From Shimia litoralis (lineage in GTDB: Bacteria > Pseudomonadota > Alphaproteobacteria > Rhodobacterales > Rhodobacteraceae), in assembly GCF_005518135.1 (NCBI RefSeq), contig NZ_SULI01000001.1, positions 124,001 through 188,000 of the forward strand: a DNA stretch of 64,000 bases. Direction: 5' to 3'. The position numbers and the translations under genes are program-made. The notes below the pieces were generated by a model. It made no database searches. It was not told the origin of the DNA and worked only from the letters and a program-made list of their open reading frames with translations. Every line of letters starts with the position of its first letter. Positions within the stretch are counted from its first letter, which is position 1. Shown here piece after piece: positions 4,492 to 35,934 of this stretch.

Positions 4492-4533
4492 AAAAAAAGC
4501 CGCGGCGTGCAGATGCAGCCGCGGCTTCTAACT
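4492..4533 (-). terminator. Terminator of cspA (possibly bidirectional)
   Basis: An AAGCCGCGG / CCGCGGCTT stem. Read on the minus strand it is followed by a run of seven T residues just after cspA. On the plus strand the downstream tract is weaker (CTAACTTTT), so it may also serve the thioesterase gene. Confidence 0.8.
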
Positions 4534-4548
4534 TTTCAACGCTTAGGC

Positions 4549-4755
4549 TTATGCCAATGCGAGGTTCACAGCGGACTCACGACCGTCACGGCCTGGTTCG
4601 ATGTCGAAAGTTACTTTTTGGTTGTCAGCCAGACCTGTCAGGCCGGAACGCTCAACAGCTGAGATGTGTACAAACACGTCTTTGCTGCCGCCGTCGGGTG
4701 CGATAAAGCCAAAACCTTTAGTTGTGTTAAACCATTTTACGGTGCCAGTAGCCAT
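4549..4755 (-). CDS. cspA: Cold-shock domain protein
   Basis: A 68-residue single cold-shock domain (OB fold) protein that binds single-stranded RNA or DNA in the cytoplasm. RNP1 is visible as K-G-F-G-F-I at residues 13-18 and RNP2 as V-F-V-H-I at 27-31. An AGGAG site lies 9 nt before the ATG. Upstream is a gap of almost 400 bp with no gene, which would allow a long untranslated leader as in known cold-shock genes. Whether this copy is cold-induced or constitutive cannot be told from sequence. Confidence 0.93.
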
Positions 4756-5151
4756 ATCCGTAGTCTCCTAATAAATCTGCCCGCAGGATGCGGCAGCTCG
4801 GCGTAGTCGTCTGGATCGAAAGACTGAACGCCGTATGAAGGAGACAGTGGTCGAAATAGAAAAACGTTTGCAAAAGCGATATGGGGGGGATTGCCGGGCA
4901 TTGCAAGGTTTCTTTTGTAAAAGTCTGGCGATGACAAGGCGTCGTTGCGCGTGTGTTACCCCGAAAACGCGGCACAGTTGTGGCGTGTCGCGACCGATAT
5001 TTTCACTCTGAGCGCGTCCATTGGGGACGAAAATGTCCAAATCTAGGGGCTGAGGTTTACACAAGCCCCATATCGGTGTGATGGGGCCGCGTTTGGAAAA
5101 AATATGGCCCCGCCTGAAAAACGGGCGAGGCCATGTAAATGTTAGGCGTGA
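4756..5151. other. Intergenic stretch: cspA leader and ettA terminator
   Basis: A 396-bp gap between two minus-strand genes. The part near 5106-5132 is the ettA terminator. The rest lies upstream of cspA and presumably holds its promoter and a long 5' leader. Short open frames here (for example 4768-5064 minus) have no ribosome site and no recognisable product. I see no clear -35/-10 pair. Confidence 0.5.
5094..5134 (-). terminator. Rho-independent terminator of ettA
   Basis: On the minus strand the stem GGCCTCGCC / GGCGGGGCC (one G.T pair) is followed by ATATTTTTT. It starts 20 bp past the ettA stop. Confidence 0.82.
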
Positions 5152-34309: not shown

Positions 34310-34344
34310 GGGGCAGTTACACGTCAGCCGCGCAAAATTTGCGA

Positions 34345-34575
34345 AAATGTGGTATAGTACCGTCGCGCGCATTGCTTTTGCGCGCCAGACGACATCCGAA
34401 ATTACCGGAGGATGATATATGAAATACAATCGGTGCGCCCCCGACCTCGTAACGAGGTGAGGGCGCCAACACCTTGGGAATTGGCGAACCTGCACCCGTG
34501 AGATGTTCGCCGATCGGAAGGTTAGGGCCGGCTTGCGAATCTTAGAACTCCGCGAGCCGGTTTGTATTTGAACAT
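34345..34575 (+). ncRNA. Candidate structured transcript with three consecutive hairpins
   Basis: An extended -10 box (TGG-TATAGT, 34350-34358) precedes about 200 bases with three stems. A: 34432-34473, about 15 bp in three blocks (GGTG/CACC, CGCCC/GGGCG, ACCTCG/CGAGGT). B: 34481-34513, 9 bp. C: 34528-34560, 10 bp, followed by TTTGTATTT like a terminator. A 13-codon ORF lies on hairpin A. It does not lead directly into a plus-strand gene. I do not recognise it as a known RNA family. The presence and boundaries of the transcript are inferred. Confidence 0.5.
34419..34460 (+). CDS. Candidate 13-residue leader peptide ORF on hairpin A
   Basis: ATG with a strong GGAGG site 7 nt upstream, 13 sense codons (M-K-Y-N-R-C-A-P-D-L-V-T-R) and TGA. 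The codons span the left and right arms of hairpin A, so a translating ribosome would open it. The peptide is not recognised and there are no runs of one amino acid as in amino-acid attenuators. Confidence 0.4.
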   Translation: MKYNRCAPDLVTR

Positions 34576-34582
34576 TCTATGA

Positions 34583-34894
34583 TCAGGCACCGTCTTCGAC
34601 AGGTGCGCGTGCCTCTGCTATTGTTTCATATGCCTGACCGGACGCGACAAGACAGGTCTGCCCATTTGTAAAGGTCACGATGATGGTCCAGGTGCCAGAC
34701 GGTGCTGCAAACACTTCGATCACGGCGTTGTCTCCGCCCAGACCAATGGCTTGGCGTGTTTCGGAAAATGTGTTGGTCAGGCGGTCGATCACACGTGGAC
34801 GCGGGGCGCAGCTTGTATTTTGTGCGGCGGCTTTTTCGGCGGCCAATACCAAAAGCCCCAATCCCATCGTGGCCTTAACAAATATGTCCTTCAT
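34583..34894 (-). CDS. Small secreted protein, unknown
   Basis: 103 residues with a Sec signal peptide (1-24, cleavage after A-A-A). The mature part has two cysteines (about residues 29 and 82) that could form a disulfide, and a short beta-rich segment (W-T-I-I-V-T-F). No family is recognised. It lies convergent to the structured-RNA locus and divergent from mcl2. Confidence 0.7.
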   Translation of the reverse strand: MKDIFVKATMGLGLLVLAAEKAAAQNTSCAPRPRVIDRLTNTFSETRQAIGLGGDNAVIEVFAAPSGTWTIIVTFTNGQTCLVASGQAYETIAEARAPVEDGA

Positions 34895-35079: not shown

Positions 35080-35934
35080 ATGGATCAGCGCGCTCGCCCT
35101 TATCGTTCGGTTCTTTACATCCCTGGCTCGAAAGAGCGGGCACTGGAAAAGGCCAAAACCCTGCCTGTAGATGCCATCATCTTTGATCTCGAAGATGCTG
35201 TGTCTGTGGATGAAAAAGAAAATGCGCGCGGTATCCTTAAGGATGCACTGGCCGCTGGTGGGTATGGCAGCCGCATGCGCATCGTGCGTATCAACGGGCT
35301 TGATACACAATGGGGCGAGGCCGACGCTAAAGCCGCCGCTGCCATGGATTGTGATGCCGTGCTGTTGCCCAAGGTCGAAAGTGCTGCCCAAGTGGACGCG
35401 TTGGCAGCCTTGGTCGGTGATAAGCCGATCTGGGCCATGATGGAAACACCGCGTGGCATGTTGAATGCCGCAGAAATTGCTGCGCATCCACAGCTGACCG
35501 GGTTTGTGATGGGCACCAATGATTTGGCAAAAGAGCTGCAGTGCCGGTTCCGTGCGGATCGCCTGCCAATGCTAACATCGCTGTCGTTGTGCCTGTTGGC
35601 GGCCAAGGCCGAAGGGATCGTCATCGTCGATGGCGTGTATAATGCGTTTAAGGACACAGAGGGTTTGAAAACCGAATGTGACCAAGGGCGTGACATGGGG
35701 ATGGATGGCAAAACGTTGATCCACCCCGCACAGGTTGATGTGGCCAACGCAGCCTTTGCCCCGACCGATGCCGAGATCGATTTGGCGCGCCGCCAGATCC
35801 AAGCTTTTGAAGAAACCGAAGCCAAGGGTGAAGGCGTGGCCGTCGTTGATGGCAAGATTGTTGAAAACCTGCACGTGGTGACGGCAAAGGAAATCCTTGC
35901 GAAAGCAGATGCAATCGCGGCGCTGGAAGGCTAA
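35080..35934 (+). CDS. mcl2: (3S)-malyl-CoA thioesterase (EMC pathway)
   Basis: 284 residues of the CitE-like CoA-ester lyase family. The start R-S-V-L-Y-I-P-G-S with I-I-F-D-L-E-D-A-V and the short length fit Mcl2, which hydrolyses (3S)-malyl-CoA to malate and CoA, rather than the longer lyase Mcl1. The C-terminal V-D-G-K-I-V-E-N-L-H is also as in Mcl2 proteins. A GGAGAG site precedes the ATG at 35080; the frame is open upstream but that part is non-coding. It lies in one unit with nnrU, DUF1737 and mch. Confidence 0.85.
   Translation: MDQRARPYRSVLYIPGSKERALEKAKTLPVDAIIFDLEDAVSVDEKENARGILKDALAAGGYGSRMRIVRINGLDTQWGEADAKAAAAMDCDAVLLPKVESAAQVDALAALVGDKPIWAMMETPRGMLNAAEIAAHPQLTGFVMGTNDLAKELQCRFRADRLPMLTSLSLCLLAAKAEGIVIVDGVYNAFKDTEGLKTECDQGRDMGMDGKTLIHPAQVDVANAAFAPTDAEIDLARRQIQAFEETEAKGEGVAVVDGKIVENLHVVTAKEILAKADAIAALEG

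What the first reader, a model, noticed from the sequence alone, without database searches (positions are those of the whole stretch)
34345..34575. Undescribed three-hairpin locus with a 13-codon ORF and its own terminator
Between the TauE/SafE gene and a minus-strand small gene there are about 200 bases with an extended -10 box (TGG-TATAGT), a strong Shine-Dalgarno, a 13-codon ORF lying fully on the first hairpin, a second 9-bp hairpin and a third 10-bp hairpin with TTTGTATTT. Nothing on the plus strand follows directly; mcl2 starts 505 bp later. The layout fits a dual-function small RNA or a leader-type regulator whose folding depends on translation. I do not recognise a known RNA family.
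Basis: partly seen in the sequence, partly recalled or inferred. Interest (0 to 1): 0.72.

Follow-up and report, generated by a model that had tools for sequence, protein, structure and literature searches.

The report
Orphan small-RNA-like unit between convergent genes
A stretch of about 270 bases between two bacterial genes carries the signals of a tiny gene (promoter, ribosome site, 13-codon reading frame, folded RNA and terminator), but no relative examined has it, so it is probably a local newcomer whose use is unproven.

Summary
The features are mostly as described: extended -10 box 34350-34358 (no -35), GGAGG 34407-34411, 13-codon ORF 34419-34460, hairpins at 34435-34466, 34472-34521 and 34528-34560, the last with a credible terminator tail. 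I add a 5' hairpin (34365-34385) and a 14-of-16 inverted repeat centred on the -10 box. Promoter followed by SD-ATG at this spacing occurs in 0 of 2000 shuffles. It is the only such pair in the 64-kb window; none occurs in 350 kb of relatives' loci. A real short transcription unit is more likely than not.

No homologue was found: no Rfam match, single copy, no convincing DNA match in about 800 other alphaproteobacterial genomes, no convincing covariance-model match in 409. At the same junction 49 relatives' loci lack it; in the 14 closest by TauE (67% or more) the spacer is 146 bp or less. It looks like a gain in this lineage, so covariation and ORF conservation cannot be tested. The attenuator reading is disfavoured: no plus-strand gene follows closely, and the terminator hairpin forms with or without a modelled ribosome. 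Best reading: an orphan ~205-nt RNA unit that may also end TauE transcripts. Mildly interesting.

The parts
34310..34582 (.). 273-bp spacer between the TauE stop and the stop of the convergent 103-aa gene; absent or replaced by other sequence in relatives
34322..34391 (.). imperfect inverted repeat, arms 34322-34337 and 34376-34391 (14 of 16 complementary), centred on the -10 box
   Evidence: 0 of 300 shuffles have such a repeat
34350..34358 (+). extended -10 promoter box TGG-TATAGT, no -35 seen; start site inferred at about 34364-34366
   Evidence: not listed by the sigma-70 scan
34365..34385 (+). 5' hairpin, 7-bp perfect stem
34407..34411 (+). Shine-Dalgarno GGAGG, 7 nt before ATG
34419..34460 (+). 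13-codon ORF MKYNRCAPDLVTR plus TGA; translation not shown
34435..34466 (+). first hairpin (6 + 6 bp); holds codons 6-13 and the stop
34472..34521 (+). second hairpin (outer 4 bp, inner 9 bp)
34528..34569 (+). third hairpin (10 bp, -17.7 kcal/mol) and T-rich tail: intrinsic-terminator-like
34422..34569 (+). possible closing stem AAATACAA (34422-34429) / TTGTATTT (34562-34569) around the three hairpins; weak evidence

Best explanation
A lineage-restricted (orphan) short transcription unit gained between the convergent genes TauE and the 103-aa gene. Inferred working: an extended -10 promoter starts an RNA at about 34365; the RNA begins with a protective 5' hairpin, carries a ribosome site and a 13-codon ORF, and ends at about 34569 at the third hairpin, giving about 205 nt. 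The third hairpin may also stop read-through from TauE into the antisense of the 103-aa gene, which would give the insert an immediate use as an insulator. Whether the RNA or the peptide does anything else is not shown. Shown: sequence signals, fold stability above shuffles, absence at this junction in the relatives examined. Inferred: transcription, translation, termination, gain rather than multiple loss.
For: Composite extended -10 then GGAGG-(5-9)-ATG 30-120 nt downstream: 0 of 2000 shuffles, 1 in the 64-kb window against 0.046 expected by density. With the same rule, 0 composites in 80 relatives' loci (350 kb) and 2 in 43 viral loci (356 kb), both in front of long ORFs (266 and 819 aa); one of these two, L100, had been fetched by a pattern holding its SD-ATG. 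Only the window's case also has a terminator-like hairpin within 260 nt. Third hairpin -17.7 kcal/mol with tail score 3.42, in the range of the other 20 candidates in the window. Fold z -4.4. Insert absent at the same junction in 49 relatives' loci, 9 of which have the two stop codons overlapping.
Against: No homologue, so no covariation and no ORF conservation. The composite rule was set after seeing the site. No -35 box; the sigma-70 scan misses it. Fold stability after GC correction is not unique in the window, and the antisense strand folds nearly as well. SD mostly paired in the isolated fold (unpaired probability 0.09-0.35). No expression data.
Confidence: 0.5

Rival explanations
1. Only a structured spacer with a terminator: the insert works as the 3' end of TauE (and perhaps of the convergent gene); -10, SD and mini-ORF are coincidence.
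For: The genes converge; at the same junction several relatives carry other hairpin or terminator-like sequences (L066, L075, L081, L147, read by eye). Third hairpin is terminator-like. Hairpins fold on both strands, and model R1 matches its own antisense strand weakly (17.2 bits, E 0.0082).
Against: Promoter, SD-ATG and terminator in order are rare. Most relatives have a much shorter spacer (38 of 49 loci at 100 bp or less).
Confidence: 0.3
2. Remnant of a larger foreign gene or mobile element whose body has decayed, leaving promoter, ribosome site and hairpins.
For: Presence at one junction in one genome only; a 29-codon frame from ATG 34412 overlaps the mini-ORF (read).
Against: Single copy; no terminal repeats or target duplication seen by eye; no match of six typed reading frames in Pfam, no credible tblastn match in plasmids for the two tested, no blastn match in plasmids or phages at 1e-5.
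Confidence: 0.15
3. Leader-type attenuator: translation of the 13 codons decides whether the RNA ends at the third hairpin.
For: SD, short ORF and terminator in the right order; a ribosome modelled on the ORF dissolves the closing stem, and at the stop also the first hairpin.
Against: The terminator hairpin stays in all three folds; the next plus-strand gene (mcl2) starts 505 bp on, beyond a convergent gene; no runs of a regulatory codon in the ORF.
Confidence: 0.03

Closest known systems
Dual-function small RNAs (SgrS type; recalled, no paper read)
   Same: Short independent transcript, short ORF with SD, terminator hairpin (here by sequence signals only)
   Different: No target, no Hfq site tested, no conservation of RNA or peptide found; the ORF is only 13 codons and runs into the first hairpin
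Intergenic sRNAs reported by RNA-seq in roseobacters (Ruegeria pomeroyi, PMC4809877: start of the abstract in the listing and one passage seen)
   Same: Intergenic unit in the same bacterial family
   Different: No expression evidence here; no homologue found; whether the R. pomeroyi set holds anything alike was not checked
Intrinsic terminators between convergent genes
   Same: GC-rich hairpin with T-rich tail at a convergent junction
   Different: Insert is 273 bp with promoter, SD and ORF; only the plus-strand terminator passes the stricter scan
Peptide-leader attenuators (trp leader type; recalled)
   Same: Short ORF overlapping a hairpin before a terminator
   Different: No near gene downstream in the same direction; terminator not exclusive with another fold

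Membership tests
any Rfam family | covariance-model match at the gathering score | tested here: not met
   0 matches in the window; the one match at E up to 10 is ArcZ, 11.2 bits against a cut-off of 66, minus strand, E 8.3
conserved structured RNA | homologues with compensatory changes | tested here: inconclusive
   no homologue found to count; next best R1 hit E 0.0122 per genome among 394 genomes, chance level; R1 is a single-sequence model and one search used stricter filters
dual-function sRNA | independent transcript | not testable with these tools
   promoter and terminator signals only
dual-function sRNA | translated ORF with conserved peptide | tested here: inconclusive
   SD-ATG present; no homologous locus found to test conservation; translation not testable
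dual-function sRNA | base-pairing target or regulatory function | not tested
   no target search was made; the whole genome was not available as a file
peptide-leader attenuator | regulated gene closely downstream on the same strand | tested here: not met
   convergent gene 34583-34894, then mcl2 with ATG read at 35080
peptide-leader attenuator | terminator exclusive with an antiterminator set by the ribosome | tested here: not met
   third hairpin forms in all three folds (free, ribosome at start, ribosome at stop)
intrinsic terminator | stable GC-rich hairpin directly followed by a T-rich tail | tested here: met
   34528-34560, -17.7 kcal/mol, tail TTTGTATTT, score 3.42; the T-run is interrupted and the loop is 13 nt, so the scan (loop up to 8) does not list it
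dispersed repeat / REP / MITE | several copies in the genome | tested here: not met
   one full copy; the nine other matches cover 15-26 query bases at E of 1.58 or more

The most novel reading that the evidence does not exclude
A newly born dual-function RNA gene: a complete ~205-nt unit gained as one piece between two nearly touching stop codons, with its promoter at the centre of a 70-bp dyad and an RNA whose four-armed fold is opened by ribosomes on a 13-codon ORF.
Probability: 0.08. Interest if true: 0.5.

Novelty: new member of a known kind. Interest (0 to 1): 0.27.

Why it matters
If transcribed, it is a clean example of how a small RNA or micro-gene may appear: the empty site (overlapping or nearly touching stop codons) is seen in related genomes and the filled site holds promoter, ribosome site, ORF and terminator together. 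If not transcribed, it is one more structured filler at a convergent junction and of little wider interest.

Tried and rejected
Rejected: Rfam membership; tRNA or tmRNA; dispersed repeat; plasmid or phage origin by blastn and by exact 16-21-mers in viral contigs (43 loci came back, their blastn matches are 16-22 nt, and R1 has no match at E up to 10); protein remnant (the single tblastn hit is in a citrate synthase gene at E 0.2). The 39-bp match in one genome (that of L056, an uncultured Shimia) lies inside a 791-aa ORF that reads to me like an RND efflux gene, and I take it for chance. A 21-base exact match in one class-level genome (E 7e-4 per genome) was not followed up. An nhmmer match to L049 (18.6 bits; alignment) lies in an intergenic hairpin element that I recall from Rhodobacteraceae genomes. 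L049 had been preselected from 394 genomes, so its E-value of 0.00039 for 1.4 Mb corresponds to about 0.4-0.5 for all of them by my estimate; a pattern for that element is absent from the own genome at up to 2 mismatches.

A first terminator scan missed the third hairpin because it tried even lengths only; corrected. Limits of the searches: searches scored at most 2 candidates per genome after the first look; one search used stricter filters with 7 per genome; one search has no positive control.

Full report
What is there. The spacer between the stop of TauE (34309) and the stop of the convergent 103-aa gene (34583) is 273 bp. On the plus strand it holds, in order: an extended -10 box TGG-TATAGT (34350-34358) without a -35 hexamer; a 7-bp hairpin right at the expected RNA start (34365-34385); GGAGG (34407-34411), 7 nt before ATG 34419; a 13-codon ORF to 34460; three hairpins (34435-34466, 34472-34521, 34528-34560); and TTTGTATTT. 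The ORF overlaps the first hairpin with codons 6-13 and the stop, not with its whole length. An 8-bp repeat could close the three hairpins into a four-armed fold, with mean pairing probability 0.83 in the isolated 148-nt piece; it does not form if the RNA runs on to 34700, and such repeats occur in 18.7% of shuffles.

More than chance? The fold is more stable than 200 of 200 shuffles on either strand (z -4.4 and -3.75). Against the rest of the window it is high but not unique: of 863 plus-strand windows 4 are at least as stable, and 6 are more extreme after GC correction. Two 9-bp hairpins in 273 bp are not rare (24 of 300 shuffles have two or more). An extended -10 alone is in 8% of shuffles and GGAGG-ATG alone in 3%. 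What is rare is the order of signals: extended -10, then SD-ATG 30-120 nt on, in 0 of 2000 shuffles. Scanned with the same rule, the window has 1 against 0.046 expected; 80 loci of relatives (350,161 bases; a few loci overlap) have 0 against 0.17 expected; 43 viral loci (356,218 bases) have 2 against 0.97 expected, both in front of long ORFs, one of them in a locus that had been fetched by its SD-ATG. Only the window's case has a terminator-like hairpin within 260 nt. The rule was made after seeing the site, so these numbers overstate the case somewhat. A 14-of-16 inverted repeat with arms 34322-34337 and 34376-34391, centred on the -10 box, is absent from 300 shuffles; its meaning is open (operator, or a hairpin in TauE read-through RNA).

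Is it conserved? No relative was found to hold it. DNA search: own genome only among 394 family genomes, one per genus; own genome plus one 21-base match among 385 class genomes (of which 5, the own one included, were also); only a 39-bp chance match in 16 genomes reached through the TauE scan; none in 25 genomes of the genus of L053, a Shimia (which has no positive control and repeats 7 genomes). That is 807 other genomes by handle; unnamed ones may repeat named ones. Single-sequence covariance model R1: own genome at 1.1e-52; 12 other family genomes at E up to 0.5, the best 0.0122, where several such are expected from 394 searches; none at E up to 1 in the 16 genomes, where every candidate was scored; none at E up to 10 in 31 syntenic loci; and in 29 further loci around the 103-aa gene only one match, L168 at E 1.5.

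The junction in relatives. Of 73 loci given to, 55 had both neighbours (18 were dropped for lack of one); two of the 55 are the window's own locus and four repeat a genome, which leaves 49. The spacer is 100 bp or less in 38 of 49, and 9 of 49 have the two stop codons overlapping by 4 bp, among them Shimia haliotis (L053), a Pseudopelagicola MAG (L060) and Shimia aestuarii (L065). In all 14 loci with TauE identity of 67% or more the spacer is 146 bp or less. The 11 longer spacers (101-833 bp) show no match to the insert by R1 or by the DNA searches; they include L170 at 66% TauE identity with 527 bp, and L017 (833 bp), which rests on a 26% match and may be no true neighbour. The window's spacer is thus most simply a gain in its lineage, though loss in the others is not excluded. 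Other relatives have other structured sequence here, by eye plain terminators in L066, L075, L081 and L147.

How it may work. The third hairpin is a plausible terminator: -17.7 kcal/mol, tail score 3.42, one of 21 such candidates on both strands of the window. That scan finds none on the minus strand of the insert; one search lists one weak minus-strand site at 34446-34428. With bases held open for a ribosome at the start, the closing stem goes and the three hairpins remain, the first one shortened; with a ribosome at the stop, the first hairpin and closing stem go and the middle refolds; the terminator hairpin stays in every case. Translation would change the shape of the RNA but not its end. 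Together with the lack of a near plus-strand gene downstream this speaks against an attenuator. I therefore commit to an orphan short transcription unit whose terminator may also insulate the convergent genes (0.5), against a mere structured spacer (0.3), a decayed remnant (0.15) and an attenuator (0.03).

Novelty. No match to any Rfam family. As a kind it is ordinary: a lineage-specific candidate small RNA. Two paper searches were made: the first gave six papers, of which the Ruegeria pomeroyi sRNA study (PMC4809877) was looked at in one passage only; the second gave none. I make no claim about what is or is not in print beyond these.

Noticed in passing
34583-34894 (-): 103-aa gene with what I read as a signal-peptide-like start, matched at E 1e-10 or better in 146 of 293 genomes, own included, but with no Pfam or NCBIfam family at E 0.001; a widespread unnamed alphaproteobacterial family.
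   Followed up: partly
34322-34391: Imperfect dyad (14 of 16) centred on the extended -10 box; 0 of 300 shuffles have one like it.
   Followed up: partly
L148, L160, L049, L052: Intergenic hairpin element with a CCCCGRGRTATTT-like core seen in relatives, by eye twice at this same convergent junction in reverse orientation (L148, L160); not found in the own genome by one pattern. I recall it as common in Rhodobacteraceae.
   Followed up: partly
about 4530-4770 (-) and 4773-5151: A cold-shock-like protein frame (my reading of the sequence, no family search) lies on the minus strand, with a long structured stretch upstream; the plus-strand window starting at 5033 is the strongest GC-corrected fold of 863.
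   Followed up: no
L076, spacer between TauE and the 103-aa gene: Repeated CTTCGAAG palindromes (GACCCTTCGAAGGGTC, AACTCTTCGAAGAGTT) in a 272-bp spacer at the same junction.
   Followed up: no
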